NCBI GenBank assembly: GCA_029232285.1
Contig: JAOXFI010000004.1
Span: 62,001-126,000, forward strand
Source of the DNA: Agmasoma carcini (nom. nud.)
Lineage: Eukaryota; Microsporidia; Thelohaniidae
DNA length: 64,000 nucleotides
Reading direction: 5' to 3'
Shown here: positions 37,859-51,822 of the stretch, in pieces
Layout: the number at the start of each line of letters is the position of its first letter
How positions within the stretch are numbered: the first letter of the stretch is position 1
Program-made: the position numbers and the translations under genes
The notes under the pieces: generated by a model
The model's database searches: none
What the model saw: only the letters and a program-made list of their open reading frames with translations
Told to the model about the DNA's origin: nothing

Positions 37859-39367
37859 ATGAACAATAAGTTACTGCAGCTATGTAAGGACAATAAATTA
37901 AAGGAGATATACGAAGTTATAGCCTCAAAAACCACCAGACCATCTTTAGAATACAAAGATTTAAATTTAACGATCCAAGATTTTGATTATCTAAAGAAAT
38001 ACACAATAAATGTTACAAGGGAAACCCTCTGTGCTTACAAGCCAATACCAAATGAGATAATGAAGGTTTCAAACATTCTAGGACATGAACATATTGATGA
38101 TATTAAACAATTGATCTCGAATTTTGTGATTTCACAGGAGTCAGCTGAACTATCACTTTTTCTTTCACAGAATTTCTACAATCTAGATTCTCTAAAGGAT
38201 TGTTTTTTGTATCTAGAAACAATTATTTTAGGATTATATGATAAATACGGGAATATACCTGATGAATGGAATATACAGCACAGTATATTGATAAAATCAA
38301 TTACAATGATAAAACAACGTATTTGTGATTATTTTTTTGCCACAGAAGCTGATGATGAATCATATACTAAAGGTTTTTCACATGCTTTAAGTTTTGAAAA
38401 AGGGCTACAGCCATATTTTGCCACCAAAACTTGTTGTGGATATGAAGGATCAAGCAATAAGAAAGGAAAGATGGTTGAGTGTATTCATACACGGATGCTC
38501 TCAAGTGTGTTTATTCCACACATATCAAAGTACTTTTCATATTACTTACGACCATTTACGACCGATCGATTCAATCAAAGCAAATGTGAACTTAATATAA
38601 TAGATCACTTCCTGTTATATTTTAGAGAAGTGAGTCAAATATGTGAGAAGGTTGAATATTTAGATGATAGTTCTACCTATTTTGAATTTATTAGACATGT
38701 AGATTCAACCCTATTAGTTACATTAAAGAGAATATCAACATCAACTAAATTTGAGGTAGGCGTGATCGTTATGAACACTTTAGTGTATATCAGCGATACT
38801 TTCAGGGATCTCGTACAAATGGTAAGATGTAAGGTTGATCTAAGCAGCGATTTCAAATCTTTAGATGAAATTTCTAGTATTGACAAGCATCAAACAAATA
38901 AACTTGAAAAAATTTTATATTGTAAATTTGACAAAAATAAAATTGTTTCGAATGGATATGAAGTTGTTAAGGGAACAATAGAAGAGCTATTTTCCTTAAT
39001 TACTAAAGAGAGCCTCTACGGGGAAACAAAATTTGCTTTATGTGACTTAATATTTTCTATTTACTTTCAAAAATTGACATCAATAAAAATGACACAAAAG
39101 TTGGCTATCAAAATGCTAGGAGAGGTATGTGAGCTAAAGTCGTATCTAGCAGAGGTAGAGTTTCCAACAGCACCTCTAAGAATTATTGAAACGTATATCA
39201 AAATATTCATACACCCTTCAGATGATCATGAATCATTTATATCGAATTTCGAAATTGTCGGTGGTAAATACTTTTCCTTTCATCAGGTTCTCAAAGCCCT
39301 AAAAGATGCAAAGCGAGCGGAAGAATTGTTTTTACTGTACAAGAAAACCCGAAAAAACTGTCCTTAA
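37859..39367 (+). CDS. VPS53: GARP/EARP tethering complex subunit VPS53
   Basis: A 502-aa all-helical protein matching Vps53, a subunit of the GARP complex that tethers endosome-derived vesicles at the trans-Golgi. The matching segments are LYDKYGNIPDEWNIQ (about 126-140), HALSFEKGLQPYF (about 175-187) and SSVFIPHISKYFSYY (about 219-233). They correspond in order and spacing to the YEEKYG..PxEW, TxxFExxLxxRF and xxxFEPHL blocks of the family. The fungal and animal proteins are 700-830 aa, so this copy is shortened at both ends. It is divergent from CKB1. Other CATCHR subunits such as Sec10 are less likely alternatives. Confidence 0.7.
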   Translation: MNNKLLQLCKDNKLKEIYEVIASKTTRPSLEYKDLNLTIQDFDYLKKYTINVTRETLCAYKPIPNEIMKVSNILGHEHIDDIKQLISNFVISQESAELSLFLSQNFYNLDSLKDCFLYLETIILGLYDKYGNIPDEWNIQHSILIKSITMIKQRICDYFFATEADDESYTKGFSHALSFEKGLQPYFATKTCCGYEGSSNKKGKMVECIHTRMLSSVFIPHISKYFSYYLRPFTTDRFNQSKCELNIIDHFLLYFREVSQICEKVEYLDDSSTYFEFIRHVDSTLLVTLKRISTSTKFEVGVIVMNTLVYISDTFRDLVQMVRCKVDLSSDFKSLDEISSIDKHQTNKLEKILYCKFDKNKIVSNGYEVVKGTIEELFSLITKESLYGETKFALCDLIFSIYFQKLTSIKMTQKLAIKMLGEVCELKSYLAEVEFPTAPLRIIETYIKIFIHPSDDHESFISNFEIVGGKYFSFHQVLKALKDAKRAEELFLLYKKTRKNCP

Positions 39368-45544: not shown

Positions 45545-46507
45545 ATGAAAGTTTTGATTATTGGTAATGGAAATTTTGGTACAACCATTTCTAAGGTTCT
45601 AGGAGAAAGTAATAATGTTACCCTGTGGGTTCATGAAGAGAAATATGATAACATGAATCTCTCAGATTGGATTAGAGATAAAAATTTGAATCCGAAATAT
45701 TTACCTGGTGTAGATCTTCCAAAAATGAATGTAATCACCGATTTTGATGCTACTGGATATGATGTTGTAATATTTTGTATTCCTCATCAATTTCTTGATT
45801 CAATCAAAAAGTTTACATTTTCAAGTGGGTCTAAATTTCTAAATCTTAGCAAAGGGCTTATTTTGGAAAATCAAAGATTAATGATGCCAGCTGAAAAGAT
45901 TTCACAAATCATTGGACATAAAGTTTCAACATTAAATGGTCCAAATATTGCCAATGAAATTGCAAATAACATGATTTGTGAAACTACAATAGGAGTGCAT
46001 GATGACAATGAAGGGAGTACATATTTAAAACTATTTTCAGCAATGAATCCTGAAATCACCACTTATAATGCTGGAATTGAACTTTTTTCTGGAATGAAGA
46101 ATATTATAAGCATTGGATATGGTGTCAGCACATGTTTTGGACATAATTTTCAATCAATAATATTCAGAAGAGGAATTTTAGAGATTAAAAGAGCATGTGA
46201 AATTCTAGGATTTGAATTTCCTTTGTTAAAAAGTTGTGGAATAGGTGATTTGTTGGTTAGTTCAATATGTGGAAGAAATTATAAATTTGGGGTTGAACTT
46301 TCAAAAAAATGCACCATAGAAGCCTTTGAAAAGCAAATGAATGATCAGAAATTGCAAGGGCCTGATGCAGCAAAGATGTTTTATGATTGGTTAAAAATAA
46401 ACAATCATGATTTGAACGATTTTCCAATTTCTGTAACAGTCTATAAAATATGCTTTGAAGGTGCAAATATGAATGAAATGAAAAAGGTTTTAAATAAACA
46501 GATTTAA
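45545..46507 (+). CDS. GPD1: NAD-dependent glycerol-3-phosphate dehydrogenase
   Basis: A 320-aa cytosolic enzyme interconverting DHAP and glycerol-3-phosphate with NAD(H). This links glycolysis to lipid synthesis and redox balance. The Rossmann motif is IIGNGNFGTTIS (about 5-16), the substrate loop is NLSKGLI (Lys102 in 320-aa numbering), the NGPNIANEIA block spans about 131-140, and the catalytic lysine is Lys185 in FSGMKNIISIGYG. GIGDLLVSSICGRNYKFG (about 232-249) closes the active site. The length is typical. Its TAA stop overlaps the stop of the convergent cyclase-like gene. Confidence 0.95.
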   Translation: MKVLIIGNGNFGTTISKVLGESNNVTLWVHEEKYDNMNLSDWIRDKNLNPKYLPGVDLPKMNVITDFDATGYDVVIFCIPHQFLDSIKKFTFSSGSKFLNLSKGLILENQRLMMPAEKISQIIGHKVSTLNGPNIANEIANNMICETTIGVHDDNEGSTYLKLFSAMNPEITTYNAGIELFSGMKNIISIGYGVSTCFGHNFQSIIFRRGILEIKRACEILGFEFPLLKSCGIGDLLVSSICGRNYKFGVELSKKCTIEAFEKQMNDQKLQGPDAAKMFYDWLKINNHDLNDFPISVTVYKICFEGANMNEMKKVLNKQI

Positions 46508-48909
46508 TATAAATTGTTGGGATCCAATTCTTCATCATCTAAGATTGGTATTACGTAATATATTCCATGGGTGTTAGGAAATCCTTTAAGGTTAAATTTA
46601 CCGATATCTTTCATATAAAATAATTCATTCAAATTTCCTATACACTGACAACAAAAGATTCCTGTGCCTAAATGAGCAACCCTATTAGATTTACTGATAC
46701 CTTGTCCTTCATAATACGGTGAAGTGTTTTCATTATCAATCGATGAAACTATTCCAATACCAGGTTCAACACCAATACTATCCAAAATTTGGTATACATG
46801 AATCGAAAATAATATGGCTGTATAATCTGAGGCAAATTTATAGAGATAATATGTGTTTCCATCATACAAGAATCTTCCTTCTAGGATCTCAGATAGAAAG
46901 GCAAAGATATTCGTTAAGTTGTGAGTTTCTTTGAAAATCAATGATTCAAATACATCTGGAAGGCTATTCATGTCTACATAGACATAATAATACCTTAGCC
47001 TATCATTTAATAGTTTTTCTAGGTCGTAGGTTAGAAGAACTGAATTGTAGACAACGCCACTATCCCTGTAAATCTCATGATGACTCATAAAATCTTCATA
47101 TGCAGTATTATATGTAGGTAAGGGAAGAGAAAGATCACTAAAATCAAGAAATTCAACTACTTCTTCAAAGAAGTCAAGATGATATTCTGAATTGACAATA
47201 GAATATTTGAGATTTAAAGGACAGCGGCACTGTATAAGATTGAAAACATCATTATAACAAGCTCTTGAAAGCCTTAGAACACAATTTCTTTTCTCTGAAA
47301 ATAGAGGAACGTCACAGAGGAGAGGTATAACCATCCAATTATGAACATTTTTGAAAATATTCATCGTATCCAAATTATCTAATCTAGAGCAATCACCATA
47401 GTTTTTTATGATGGCTGGAAGGTGATGTGATACAACAAATACGCTATTTGGAGTAATCAATGTAAATAATGCCCTTATGACTGTTTTCTTCGAGGGATTG
47501 TAATGTTCAGAGGTTTTATCACTTTTTCTTGTATTAAAACCCGTTGGATCCATAAAAACCTTCATTTTTAGCCTTTCTACGAATTTTTTAAGAAAATAAA
47601 CATTATTTTCAACCTTTGCTGCTGAAAGTGCAACCCCTTTGATTGTTTCTTTCAAATCTACATTTTCCGGTGTTTCTAAAACAATAATCAGCCTTTTAAA
47701 GTGTGGCTTATCAATTTTGATGCTATACTTTTGAATAAATGTGTTTTGAGTCTTACAAATGTGCCTTTTAATAGACCTCTTAAGGCTATTAGCCCTGCAA
47801 TTAAGATATGATGAATTAGCTACTATTGATTTAAGATGGTTAGGTAAGCCAACCATAACCGATCCATATGCCGTATCAGTTAAAAATAAGTTAATATGAA
47901 CTAAATCAACAAAATCTGTTAAAACCAAGTTAGATATTGGATTTTTAGATAAGTTTAAGGTTTTTACCTTGTTTGGTATGACCTTATCTAAGAAATTACC
48001 GGTAAAATCACCGTGTTTTAGGGATAGCATCAAAGGTACTTCAGTGATAAAGTTGTATTTTGCAGATATGAATTCAATTAGATTGTGCTTGAAGTTGATC
48101 TCTTTAAGATTACAATTATCAATGTATAATCTTTCTATGTTATTACATTTACTTAGATCTATACTCTTACAATTGTTCGCATTTATGATTCTTGCTGTTG
48201 TGAATAGCTTAAAATCTTCTTTGATATTTTGTACTTTAAGACTGTCAGTGAATACACTAAGATGAGTTAAAGGATTTGAAGAAAGATCAATATAAGAGAA
48301 TTTTGATTTGGAATTGAACTTTTTTATACAATTATGGGACAAGTTTAAGATTTTTGCAGTATGATGAAAGTTAACAAGCCTATTATAAGAAAGATCTAAG
48401 TAATTAAGCTTAATACCATCCATTTTTACAGTAATTAGACCACAGTTGCTAAGTCTAACCCATTTAAGAGATTTAGCAGAAACTAGAGAAATATATCTTA
48501 AGTCCGTATTTGGCATATTAAGATACGATAGATGGGTTATATTTAAAGATATATCATTACTTAGGCTTGATAATAGTTCTAGGTTGATACAGCTTATGAA
48601 ATAACTACAACGCAGTACTATCTTGTTATCAACGAATATTAGAAGTTTTGATTGTCTGAACTGCGCTTTCCGTAAAAGACGTGGTTTTCCATCGATGAAA
48701 TGATAAAAGAAAATATTTGGTTTTGCTAAAATTTTGTGAAATTCGTCCCATATGTAAGAAAATGAACCCTTTAGTTTACAATTAGCATTATTTATCAAAA
48801 ATCGAAAACTGTAAGTTGTGGTATTCTCGTTTTCACATTCATTATTGTTTATGAAGGTGATGGTATGACCAGATATTGTTTTTTCAATCTCTATTAAGTT
48901 TTCCATCAT
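46504..48909 (-). CDS. LRR protein with Cyr1-like (LRR-PP2C-cyclase) layout, cyclase apparently degenerate
   Basis: An 801-aa protein. Residues about 30-100 may be a ubiquitin/RA-like start. About 105-365 are leucine-rich repeats (LKWVRLSNCGL, LNYLDLSYNRL, KILNLSHNCI, FSYIDLSSNPL, VKTLNLSKNPI). About 400-600 fit the position and strand pattern of the PP2C-like domain. About 640-800 resemble a class III nucleotide cyclase: YVYVDMNSLPDVFES (Asp646 in place of the first metal Asp), HNLTNIFAFLSEILEG, LYDGNTYYLYKF, VEPGIGIVSS, then YYEGQGISKSNRVAHLGTG. The second metal site, normally GD, reads GN (Asn685). Fungal Cyr1 proteins have this order in about 2000 aa. Enzymatic activity is uncertain. MM start at 48909; the stop overlaps GPD. 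Confidence 0.7.
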   Translation of the reverse strand: MMENLIEIEKTISGHTITFINNNECENENTTTYSFRFLINNANCKLKGSFSYIWDEFHKILAKPNIFFYHFIDGKPRLLRKAQFRQSKLLIFVDNKIVLRCSYFISCINLELLSSLSNDISLNITHLSYLNMPNTDLRYISLVSAKSLKWVRLSNCGLITVKMDGIKLNYLDLSYNRLVNFHHTAKILNLSHNCIKKFNSKSKFSYIDLSSNPLTHLSVFTDSLKVQNIKEDFKLFTTARIINANNCKSIDLSKCNNIERLYIDNCNLKEINFKHNLIEFISAKYNFITEVPLMLSLKHGDFTGNFLDKVIPNKVKTLNLSKNPISNLVLTDFVDLVHINLFLTDTAYGSVMVGLPNHLKSIVANSSYLNCRANSLKRSIKRHICKTQNTFIQKYSIKIDKPHFKRLIIVLETPENVDLKETIKGVALSAAKVENNVYFLKKFVERLKMKVFMDPTGFNTRKSDKTSEHYNPSKKTVIRALFTLITPNSVFVVSHHLPAIIKNYGDCSRLDNLDTMNIFKNVHNWMVIPLLCDVPLFSEKRNCVLRLSRACYNDVFNLIQCRCPLNLKYSIVNSEYHLDFFEEVVEFLDFSDLSLPLPTYNTAYEDFMSHHEIYRDSGVVYNSVLLTYDLEKLLNDRLRYYYVYVDMNSLPDVFESLIFKETHNLTNIFAFLSEILEGRFLYDGNTYYLYKFASDYTAILFSIHVYQILDSIGVEPGIGIVSSIDNENTSPYYEGQGISKSNRVAHLGTGIFCCQCIGNLNELFYMKDIGKFNLKGFPNTHGIYYVIPILDDEELDPNNLY

Positions 48910-49323: not shown

Positions 49324-51822
49324 TTATACGTTTATATGCTTTCTATACTCTTCATCTACATCTATAAGAAATGAATATAGATTTTCTAATACTTCATTGA
49401 TTGGTGTTCTTTGTGGCTCACCAAACCACTCTTTTACACCATCAGAGACCAACATTGAATACTTACAACGCTCTGATACATCATTTAGCTTAAAATTTAT
49501 ATAACTTACCACTTTCCTTAGATTATCCTTATATTTTTGATCAATTTGATTGTAAATGTTTAAAATTTCATTATATTGATGGATAAGGTTGTTAAATCTT
49601 ACTATTACATCCTTAAAATCCTCCTTTTTAATCTCTTCTATAGCTTTTATGATATCTTTAATATTCAATTCACTATTTTCACTTCTTATAATCATTTTTA
49701 CTAAGAATTTTAATAAATTACAATTAAGTCCTTTATATGGCTTTAAAAGTGATAAACATGATAATTTAAAGCCTTTGGTTTTCTCTCCTTTAACAGAATA
49801 TGCATGATTTACAGTATTAAATATTTCCAATACTCCCTTAAACAAAATTCTTATTTCTTCGTTATTTTGTATAAAATTTAAAATTTTTATAAATTTTTCA
49901 ATTGTTGAACAAATCAAGTTAATCTCTTCAAAAAATGTATTTTTGTATATGTAAATATCAATCAATTGCAGAATATTTGCATGTTGTGATACATTTAACA
50001 TTATTTTCTCCACAAAATTTAGTTTGTGATGATCTGACAAATTTAAAGATCTTTCTTCTTCTTCTGAAGGGAAAATAGTCTTAAGATTATTTAAATCTTT
50101 GATTGTTAAAGAATTTACATCTTTTAATAATGAACCAACATCCTTAGGGTCAATATTTGACCTTTCCAGGTGTTTTATTGATAATGCAACCAAGAATTGA
50201 CGCTTTTTACTGATAACTTCTATAATTTTCTCATCTTTAACAAAAGACTTTACATCGTTTTTATCAACGCAAAATTCTCTTTCAAACTGATCAAAATCAA
50301 TTTTTAACATTGTTTCATTTAAATTAGCAAAAATTGTGTTTTCTGTTGTGCCTATCGCCTCTAAATAGAGCGGTCTTCTGGCTACTAATGTTAAATTGTT
50401 TCTAGATACAGATTTTTTTAGAATGAGCTTCTTAGGTCGACATTCAAACTGTTTTTTCCTATCCGCCTCACATACCATGTTTACATTCGTTATTTTCATG
50501 TTTTTATATCGTTTAAAGTTCTTTTCAAAGGCTCTAAACTCTAAGAAAGGTTTTTGATCTTGAAGATCATGACCAATATTAGAACTTTCGACTTGAATTG
50601 TACTCTTTATAGGGTCTTTAATACCAAAACCAACCAGATTTTTAGCAAAATCAACACTTTCTTCATATGAATATGACATTTTACTACAAAATTCAGCTAT
50701 AGATACATAAAACCCCATATTTTTAAGCTTATCACAGAATTTTTGATCAAATGAAAATATTATTTTGTTATTTAACTTGCTAAATAGTGTCTGTGGACTA
50801 TGTATTATTTCATAAGGATTGCTTGATTGGGTAGATACATCTTCCATTATAACAATATCAATATGAAAATCATTTGAATAATATTTGTATATTGACTCTC
50901 TTGGTAAATTTGTTTGTATTTCGTCTCTATCAAATCTATATAGGCCTTGATCGTAAAACAGACTATTTAGCTTTAGATTAAATATGTTTATCAGTCGACC
51001 GTCATCATTAGCACAGAGTGTAATCTCAAAGTCTTCATTAATGTGTGTGTTCACACCTGAATATATTATATAATCTTCATTCATAATACTTTGTTCATTT
51101 TTTAGATTTACTGTTTTTTTATCAGTAGTTATGATGCATACAGGCTTAGATCTGGATTTATCTATATGTGAAGGTATTGTAGTCATTATTATTTGATTTA
51201 ATATTCTATTTTTCTTATTTTTTATTGTATTTTTCCTACAGTAGTACTCTAGGTATCTTTGATATAAGCTTTTATCATTAATATCAAATATTTGAGTGAA
51301 GAATTGGGCAATATATTTAAAATCTTCAATCTTGTGAAGGTCATAGGCCATACAACTAGCCAATAATATGCTTAGATCATATTTTTCTTGTGATATTTCA
51401 ATTATAATTATATTTTGTTTATCTAATCGTAACCAAGTATTAAGAATGTCACAATATTCTTGAATCTTTGATAAATTGTACTCTAAATCATTAAAGTTTA
51501 TATATTTACCAAATTTTTTATCAGTAAATCTCTTTTGAAGCTTAATTATGATAAATTTGTTGAATGTTATTGATAGAAAGTTTATTGCCTCGTCGATGTT
51601 GTTCTTTTTTGAAAATCTTTCAGTTTTATTAGCCCAGCATTCACCTATGACATACAAACGTTCATTGATCTTCCATAGGTTAATTGGATATAAGTTTTTA
51701 TTGTGATCAGTGTGGTTCATTGACCTTCTTACTTCAATTTTTGAATTGATATTAGTTTGTAGTCTTTGTATTCGTTGTAATATACCTTCCTGTATTTTAT
51801 TATCCTTTTCATCCTCTGACAT
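49324..51822 (-). CDS. Formin with N-terminal PTEN-like and C2-like domains (phosphatase loop lost)
   Basis: An 832-aa protein. Residues about 45-200 follow the PTEN fold: LYPINLWKINERLYVIGECW, then RFSKKNNIDEAINFL, IQEYCDILNTWL, IIIIEISQEKYDLSILLASC and YQRYLEYYC. The catalytic HCxxGxxRT loop is replaced by EISQEKYDLS (142-151), so it should bind lipid without hydrolysing it. About 210-330 are beta-rich, as in the PTEN C2 domain. About 460-830 are an FH2 domain: KKRQFLVALSI (539-549), LNNLKTIFPSEEEE (577-590), KLNFVEKIMLNVSQ (600-613), then GFKLSCLSLLK (684-694). FH2 dimers nucleate and cap actin filaments. No proline-rich FH1 is evident. The order PTEN-C2-FH2 is that of plant class II formins. 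ATG at 51822; the preceding TTG is ignored. Confidence 0.8.
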   Translation of the reverse strand: MSEDEKDNKIQEGILQRIQRLQTNINSKIEVRRSMNHTDHNKNLYPINLWKINERLYVIGECWANKTERFSKKNNIDEAINFLSITFNKFIIIKLQKRFTDKKFGKYINFNDLEYNLSKIQEYCDILNTWLRLDKQNIIIIEISQEKYDLSILLASCMAYDLHKIEDFKYIAQFFTQIFDINDKSLYQRYLEYYCRKNTIKNKKNRILNQIIMTTIPSHIDKSRSKPVCIITTDKKTVNLKNEQSIMNEDYIIYSGVNTHINEDFEITLCANDDGRLINIFNLKLNSLFYDQGLYRFDRDEIQTNLPRESIYKYYSNDFHIDIVIMEDVSTQSSNPYEIIHSPQTLFSKLNNKIIFSFDQKFCDKLKNMGFYVSIAEFCSKMSYSYEESVDFAKNLVGFGIKDPIKSTIQVESSNIGHDLQDQKPFLEFRAFEKNFKRYKNMKITNVNMVCEADRKKQFECRPKKLILKKSVSRNNLTLVARRPLYLEAIGTTENTIFANLNETMLKIDFDQFEREFCVDKNDVKSFVKDEKIIEVISKKRQFLVALSIKHLERSNIDPKDVGSLLKDVNSLTIKDLNNLKTIFPSEEEERSLNLSDHHKLNFVEKIMLNVSQHANILQLIDIYIYKNTFFEEINLICSTIEKFIKILNFIQNNEEIRILFKGVLEIFNTVNHAYSVKGEKTKGFKLSCLSLLKPYKGLNCNLLKFLVKMIIRSENSELNIKDIIKAIEEIKKEDFKDVIVRFNNLIHQYNEILNIYNQIDQKYKDNLRKVVSYINFKLNDVSERCKYSMLVSDGVKEWFGEPQRTPINEVLENLYSFLIDVDEEYRKHINV

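What the first reader, a model, noticed from the sequence alone, without database searches (positions are those of the whole stretch)
46504..48909. Miniature Cyr1-like LRR-PP2C-cyclase protein with a damaged metal site
Seen: leucine-rich repeats at 105-365, a 200-residue middle region, then a cyclase-like C-terminus with Asp646 but GN (Asn685) where the second metal Asp is expected. Known: fungal adenylyl cyclase Cyr1 has RA, LRR, PP2C-like and cyclase domains in this order. Inference: a fungal Ras/cAMP scaffold survives in a genome stripped of most signalling, either as a pseudo-cyclase sensor or as an enzyme with a changed metal site.
Basis: partly seen in the sequence, partly recalled or inferred. 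Interest (0 to 1): 0.8.

Follow-up and report, generated by a model that had tools for sequence, protein, structure and literature searches.

The report
Degenerate LRR-cyclase relic in a microsporidian
A gene in a stripped-down parasite genome looks like a shrunken descendant of the fungal enzyme that makes the messenger cAMP, but most of its catalytic residues seem to be gone, while a second cyclase-like gene and a cAMP-type kinase are still present.

Summary
The 801-aa ORF (46504-48909, minus) is real and intact: leucine-rich repeats, about 270 undetermined residues, then a C-terminal domain (about 636-790) that is probably a very distant class III nucleotidyl cyclase. The homology is weak: curated models are silent, but profile tests beat shuffles (hhalign 24.7 against at most 20.5 in 300; block test 0 of 1000 after one change of layout, 7 of 1000 before). 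D646 falls on the first metal Asp. Whether N685 or T686 sits at the second is unsettled; neither is Asp. RA and PP2C were not detected.

New: contig C51 of the same genome encodes a second, clear class III domain that keeps both metal Asp but lacks Asn, Arg and the last strands, so the two are roughly complementary. PKA-like regulatory and catalytic subunits are present. No RasGEF, true RasGAP or phosphodiesterase was found, with weak controls.

Best reading: a degenerate Cyr1-type scaffold, inactive as a homodimer. Bold reading: a composite two-gene cyclase. A published survey found no LRR cyclase in Encephalitozoon cuniculi.

The parts
46504..48909 (-). intact ORF, 801 aa: LRR plus degenerate class III cyclase-like protein
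   Evidence: the search of its own genome with it returns only itself at E up to 1
48598..48909 (-). residues 1-104, N-terminal region in the place of an RA domain; no family detected
   Evidence: only Baculo_FP_2nd, E 0.023, below cut-off
47815..48597 (-). residues 105-365, leucine-rich repeats
47005..47814 (-). residues 366-635, middle region in the place of PP2C; no PP2C signal
   Evidence: hhalign at shuffle level; Mak16 E 0.004, below cut-off
46540..47004 (-). residues 636-790, class III cyclase-like domain
46972..46974 (-). D646, first metal Asp position, kept
   Evidence: against: 37 of 40 alignments with Cyr1-type subsets placed it elsewhere
46852..46869 (-). residues 681-686 (LYDGNT), beta hairpin; place of the adenine Lys (L681 or Y682) and of the second metal Asp (N685 or T686), both lost
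46714..46716 (-). Y732 at the adenine-specifying Asp
46693..46695 (-). S739 at the transition-state Asn
46681..46683 (-). R743, transition-state/phosphate Arg, kept
46585..46587 (-). K775, phosphate Lys in NLKGF, kept

Best explanation
The gene is a strongly diverged, shortened descendant of the fungal LRR adenylyl cyclase (Cyr1 type). Its C-terminal class III domain has lost so many active-site residues that it cannot make cAMP as a homodimer. It most likely survives as an intracellular scaffold or regulatory pseudo-cyclase: the LRRs hold a partner, and the cyclase-like domain keeps the dimerisation fold and pairs with itself or with the second class III protein (C51), upstream of the retained PKA. 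Shown: ORF, LRRs, the residues at the aligned sites, presence of C51 and of PKA-like subunits. Supported but not proved: class III homology. Inferred: Cyr1 descent, scaffold role, partners, link to PKA.
Against: No Pfam cyclase hit to the window protein. hhalign's own probability is only 10% (prokaryotic) and 25% (Cyr1-type, one 25-column motif). hmmsearch gives 2.8 bits with the Cyr1-type profile and 4.7 and 4.0 bits with two prokaryotic profiles (2 and 3 of 4000 shuffles as good); a third profile did not report the protein at all. The first block layout placed the blocks elsewhere and 7 of 1000 shuffles did as well. Without the last block, 2 of 3000 shuffles reach the score. With random Cyr1-type subsets, only 3 of 40 MAFFT alignments put D646 on the metal Asp, and those were wrong elsewhere. 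The single-sequence AlphaFold2 model failed (pLDDT 31.5). The better model was given cyclases, so its matches are partly circular; Foldseek's best has TM 0.46 and rmsd 9.7, and the stretch with Y732, S739 and R743 has pLDDT mostly under 50. PP2C and RA were not seen. No orthologue was available.
Confidence: 0.47

Rival explanations
1. Composite heterodimeric cyclase: the C51 protein supplies both metal aspartates and the window protein supplies the phosphate-binding Arg and Lys, as in soluble guanylyl cyclase or mammalian C1/C2, and the pair makes the cAMP that the PKA regulatory subunit binds.
For: C51 is a clear class III domain (Pfam E 2.2e-10; hhalign probability 97), the only PF00211 hit in the genome (which missed the window gene). 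It keeps D59 and D102 but has E160 and D164 at Asn/Arg and ends before the Lys strand, while the window protein keeps R743 and K775 and lacks the second Asp. In sGC the metal Asps sit on alpha and a phosphate Arg and Lys on beta, and homodimers are inactive (PMC3591389, passages). The PKA-R-like protein keeps a cAMP-type cassette.
Against: Neither protein has the adenine-specifying Lys/Asp or the transition-state Asn. C51 lacks the last strands. The genes are on different contigs. No interaction evidence.
Confidence: 0.12
2. Unrelated LRR protein: the C-terminal resemblance is convergence or over-reading.
For: No Pfam hit; weak or missing hmmsearch scores; low hhalign probabilities; single-sequence model failed. 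Secreted microsporidian LRR proteins with similarity to adenylate cyclases and other regulators are described in A. locustae (PMC3976299, passages).
Against: hhalign and block scores above all shuffles, blocks in order, and helix/strand order of the class III fold even in the failed unguided model (residues 650-721). The N-terminus MMENLIEIEKTISG shows no signal peptide by eye.
Confidence: 0.28
3. Active homodimeric cyclase using an unusual metal site (for example D683 or N685) and non-canonical purine contacts.
For: D646, R743 and K775 are kept; D683 lies in the hairpin; 5 of 33 prokaryotic rows have Thr at the Asn, so Ser there may be tolerated; a PKA-R-like protein implies a need for a cyclic nucleotide.
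Against: Second Asp, Lys and adenine Asp are replaced at positions that are invariant or nearly so in 120 Cyr1-type and 33 prokaryotic rows.
Confidence: 0.06
4. Decaying relic under relaxed selection, with cAMP taken from the host or PKA driven by another ligand.
For: Several catalytic losses here and a truncated second cyclase.
Against: An 801-codon frame without stops in a 27% GC window argues for selection on the protein.
Confidence: 0.07

Closest known systems
Fungal LRR adenylyl cyclase (S. cerevisiae Cyr1, C. albicans Cyr1)
   Same: LRRs followed at a distance by a C-terminal class III-like domain; last motif DIGKFNLKGFPN...VIP close to the Cyr1-type consensus ELGERKLKGLENPE...VYP
   Different: 801 aa against about 2000 (recalled); RA and PP2C not detected; second metal Asp, adenine Lys and Asp, and Asn replaced; the Cyr1-type insertion before the fourth strand and the C-terminal extension are missing
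Compact prokaryotic class III cyclases (Ma1120-like; L075-L085)
   Same: domain size and block order; top matches of the guided model
   Different: those rows keep nearly the full residue set; the window protein has lost four of seven sites
Heterodimeric class III cyclases (soluble guanylyl cyclase alpha/beta; mammalian C1/C2)
   Same: division of metal Asps and phosphate Arg/Lys between two homologous domains, if C51 is the partner
   Different: base-specifying residues and Asn missing from both halves here; pairing not tested

Membership tests
Fungal LRR adenylyl cyclase (Cyr1) | leucine-rich repeats | tested here: met
   (6 strict matches, 2 of 5000 shuffles); below cut-off; weaker (13 of 2000)
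Fungal LRR adenylyl cyclase (Cyr1) | class III domain at the C-terminus | tested here: met
   met by shuffle tests only: above all shuffles; weak; first layout reached by 7 of 1000; Pfam silent
Fungal LRR adenylyl cyclase (Cyr1) | PP2C-like domain between LRR and cyclase (present in all LRR-cyclases in PMC2939053) | tested here: inconclusive
   12.4 and 10.4 against shuffle means 13.2 and 12.5 (150 shuffles each); a known Cyr1-type fragment scores only 31.6 with the same PP2C profile
Fungal LRR adenylyl cyclase (Cyr1) | Ras-association domain (absent in some members by PMC2939053) | tested here: inconclusive
   nothing over a cut-off in residues 1-104
Catalytically active class III cyclase | first metal Asp | tested here: met
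   D646; not in 37 of 40 alignments
Catalytically active class III cyclase | second metal Asp | tested here: not met
   T686, N685 (by hand) or a gap, never Asp
Catalytically active class III cyclase | adenine-specifying Lys and Asp | tested here: not met
   Lys: Y682, L681 (by hand) or an Asn in a doubtful register; Asp: Y732
Catalytically active class III cyclase | transition-state Asn and Arg | tested here: not met
   S739 replaces Asn; R743 kept
Catalytically active class III cyclase | class III fold shown by structure | tested here: inconclusive
Heterodimeric class III cyclase | partner domain with the complementary residues | tested here: inconclusive
   C51 keeps D59 and D102 and lacks Asn/Arg/Lys, but base residues and Asn are absent from both
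Heterodimeric class III cyclase | physical dimer and activity | not testable with these tools
   no complex prediction or assay on hand

The most novel reading that the evidence does not exclude
In this microsporidian the fungal Cyr1 was split into two degenerate, complementary class III domains: a stand-alone metal-donor subunit (C51) and an LRR-scaffold subunit (the window gene) that donates the phosphate-binding Arg and Lys. Together they form one composite site feeding PKA, a parallel to metazoan C1/C2 and soluble guanylyl cyclase that would tell where cAMP comes from in a parasite lineage whose PKA has had no known LRR cyclase.
Probability: 0.1. Interest if true: 0.85.

Novelty: new variant of a known kind. 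Interest (0 to 1): 0.5.

Why it matters
E. cuniculi has a PKA catalytic and two regulatory subunits (PMC2078597, passages), and a survey found no LRR cyclase in it (PMC2939053, passages), so the source of cAMP in microsporidia looks open. A genome with PKA-like subunits, one truncated class III domain and one LRR-borne degenerate domain makes the question testable: two candidate genes, one clear set of expected and missing residues, and simple complementation assays in laboratory strains.

Tried and rejected
Rejected: PP2C as detected (shuffle level). RA as detected. Alignment of FKETHNLT with FTDIKNST (MAFFT): it would leave about 24 residues between the metal sites instead of about 44 and drop two helices. 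With compact prokaryotic relatives D646 takes that place in 5 of 6 trials (not with start 620 and --auto) and 6 of 6. MAFFT on the full length or with Cyr1-type rows only gave unstable registers: and only 3 of 40 random subsets put D646 on the metal Asp. I then chose compact prokaryotic rows because they align, a choice made after seeing results. Of 65 loci, 62 were translated (three short matches, L077, L080 and L090, dropped), 33 could be trimmed, 26 were 175 residues or less, and 25 went into alignment A4 (L091 dropped).

Led nowhere: homologue searches with the window protein (none at E up to 1) and C51 (none at 0.001); paralogues in the genome (only itself); microsporidian SSU rRNA (none, although 9 of 14 control genomes rang); single-sequence fold; block layout 1. 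PF00233 rang in no control genome, so its silence says nothing; PF02112 was silent with two sub-cut-off controls; PF00617 silent with one sub-cut-off control. An upstream CCC/GGG motif is not clearly enriched (5 of 27 ORFs against 12.4% of 25-mers). Galpha and CAP were not searched. One search stopped at its third profile because the window protein was not reported with it; one search stopped with an error and was redone. PMC2447327 was opened for residue roles and gave one passage without them.

Not in print as far as searched: (20 of 35 listed; 20 of 28; 15 of 60; 12 of 82; 4 of 4; 8 of 8; 10 of 69; 0; 8 of 14) and 99 (10 of 45) showed, in titles and starts of abstracts, no microsporidian LRR or pseudo adenylyl cyclase; seven papers were opened, each by passages only; only CC0, CC BY and CC BY-SA papers of PMC are held.

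Full report
What is there. The stretch 46504-48909 on the minus strand is one open frame of 801 codons from ATG to stop. It overlaps the end of a convergent glycerol-3-phosphate dehydrogenase gene (45545-46507) by 4 bases and has an unassigned 832-aa ORF upstream. The wider window holds ordinary eukaryotic genes by Pfam: pol epsilon, XPA, TAF6, UFD1, CK2 beta, an XPG-type nuclease, a MutS homologue. The genome holds 4.26 Mb in 69 contigs. That it is microsporidian rests on the uS17 protein, whose three best PDB matches are 6rm3, 7qep and 6zu5, entries that I recall as microsporidian ribosomes; a second protein, uL23, had 7qep and 6zu5 third and fourth of seven hits. The microsporidian SSU rRNA model found nothing in the assembly.

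LRR part. Residues 105-365 show the L..L.L..N.L pattern: 6 strict matches against a mean of 1.14 in shuffles, 2 of 5000 shuffles reaching 6. Pfam LRR_8 is found at E 0.0044, below its own cut-off. A looser chain test was reached by 13 of 2000 shuffles.

Cyclase part. No Pfam cyclase model hits the window protein. I therefore gathered relatives: 203 Cyr1-type fragments, 120 listed and used (the six with an organism name that I saw are fungi), and 65 prokaryotic class III loci, of which 62 were translated and 33 trimmed to the domain. A five-block profile misplaced the blocks, and 7 of 1000 shuffles scored as well. After splitting the long block and widening the gaps, a change made after that result, the window protein scored 6.9 against a shuffle mean of -31.4 (sd 5.9, maximum -4.8 in 1000) and was the best of 25 open frames of 150 residues or more in the window, the next at -17.4. 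Without the last motif 2 of 3000 shuffles did as well. hhalign gave 24.7 with the prokaryotic alignment (its own probability 10%), against a mean of 12.6 and a maximum of 20.5 in 300 shuffles; with the Cyr1-type alignment 29.9 (probability 25%), from the last motif alone and without a shuffle control. hmmsearch was weak: 2.8 bits with the Cyr1-type profile, 4.7 and 4.0 bits with two prokaryotic profiles (2 and 3 of 4000 shuffles as good), and no report with a third.

Active site. Positions: first metal Asp D646; adenine Lys L681 or Y682; second metal Asp N685 or T686; adenine Asp Y732; Asn S739; Arg R743; phosphate Lys K775. The hairpin register is ambiguous: ungapped alignment gives T686 and Y682, matching GN to GD by hand gives N685 and L681, MAFFT leaves a gap. 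No register gives Asp or Lys. In 120 Cyr1-type rows the sites are D 75 (45 gaps), K 117 (3 gaps), D 116 (3 gaps, 1 N), D 120, N 114, R 117, K 101 (15 gaps); in 33 prokaryotic rows D 31, K 33, D 33, D 33, N 27, R 31, K 25 (7 R). So four of seven sites are lost, and a homodimer should be inactive. The residue roles are established knowledge; the sGC structure paper gives the split of metal Asps and phosphate Arg/Lys between subunits and the inactivity of homodimers (PMC3591389, passages).

A second cyclase gene. The only PF00211 match in the genome lies on contig C51: a 196-aa ORF, Pfam E 2.2e-10, 47.9 bits with the prokaryotic profile and 0 of 4000 shuffles, hhalign probability 97. It keeps D59 and D102 but has G98, K153, E160 and D164 at Lys, Asp, Asn and Arg, and stops before the last strands; the sequence after the stop is AT-rich. 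Taken together the two proteins hold both metal Asps, an Arg and a Lys, but no adenine pair and no Asn.

Pathway context. One cNMP-binding gene encodes a 305-aa protein (L010) that matches PKA regulatory subunits (82 bits to RI-alpha, E 3e-22) and, slightly better, a cGMP-dependent kinase. By eye it has RRMSV and FGELSLLHNIPRTAT, with the Glu and Arg of a cAMP-type cassette. A PKA-like kinase is L005 (by eye). Small GTPases: 10 matches; three starts that I looked at resemble Rabs and one Sar1; the rest were not classified. RasGEF: none. RasGAP: one match below cut-off in an ORF that looks like IQGAP. PDE: none, with weak or no positive control. PP2C anywhere: none, with 6 of 14 controls ringing.

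Literature. PMC2939053 (passages): LRR plus cyclase only in fungi, missing in E. cuniculi and B. dendrobatidis; all fungal members there have LRR, PP2C and cyclase. PMC2078597 and PMC4280135 (passages): PKA in E. cuniculi, with two regulatory subunits, and in N. bombycis and N. ceranae, not in E. bieneusi. The passages of PMC2666651 and PMC3976299 named no microsporidian cyclase; the second reports LRR proteins with similarity to adenylate cyclases among other regulators.

Verdict. The best reading is a degenerate Cyr1-type LRR pseudo-cyclase kept for binding; the composite two-gene cyclase is the bold alternative. Orthologues would settle most of it.

Noticed in passing
L009:1546-2136 minus (G000:C51:about 38233-38823): Stand-alone 196-aa class III cyclase domain with both metal Asp but without Asn, Arg and the last strands, in a 19-22% GC low-complexity stretch.
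   Followed up: partly
L010:1180-2097 minus (G000:C4): PKA regulatory-subunit-like protein with RRMSV and one intact cyclic-nucleotide cassette; the second looks degenerate by eye.
   Followed up: partly
P0003 (metagenome protein): A fragment 78% identical to yeast Cyr1 also has GN instead of GD at the second metal Asp, the only such row of 120.
   Followed up: no
L021:67-3114 plus: 1015-aa ORF that looks like IQGAP, with the only RasGAP match in the genome (below cut-off).
   Followed up: no
L008:2833-3204 minus: Ferredoxin-like 123-aa ORF (GACEANLACSTC) by eye, probably mitosomal.
   Followed up: no
window 49324-51822 minus: 832-aa ORF without any Pfam match at E up to 0.001, next to the finding.
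   Followed up: no
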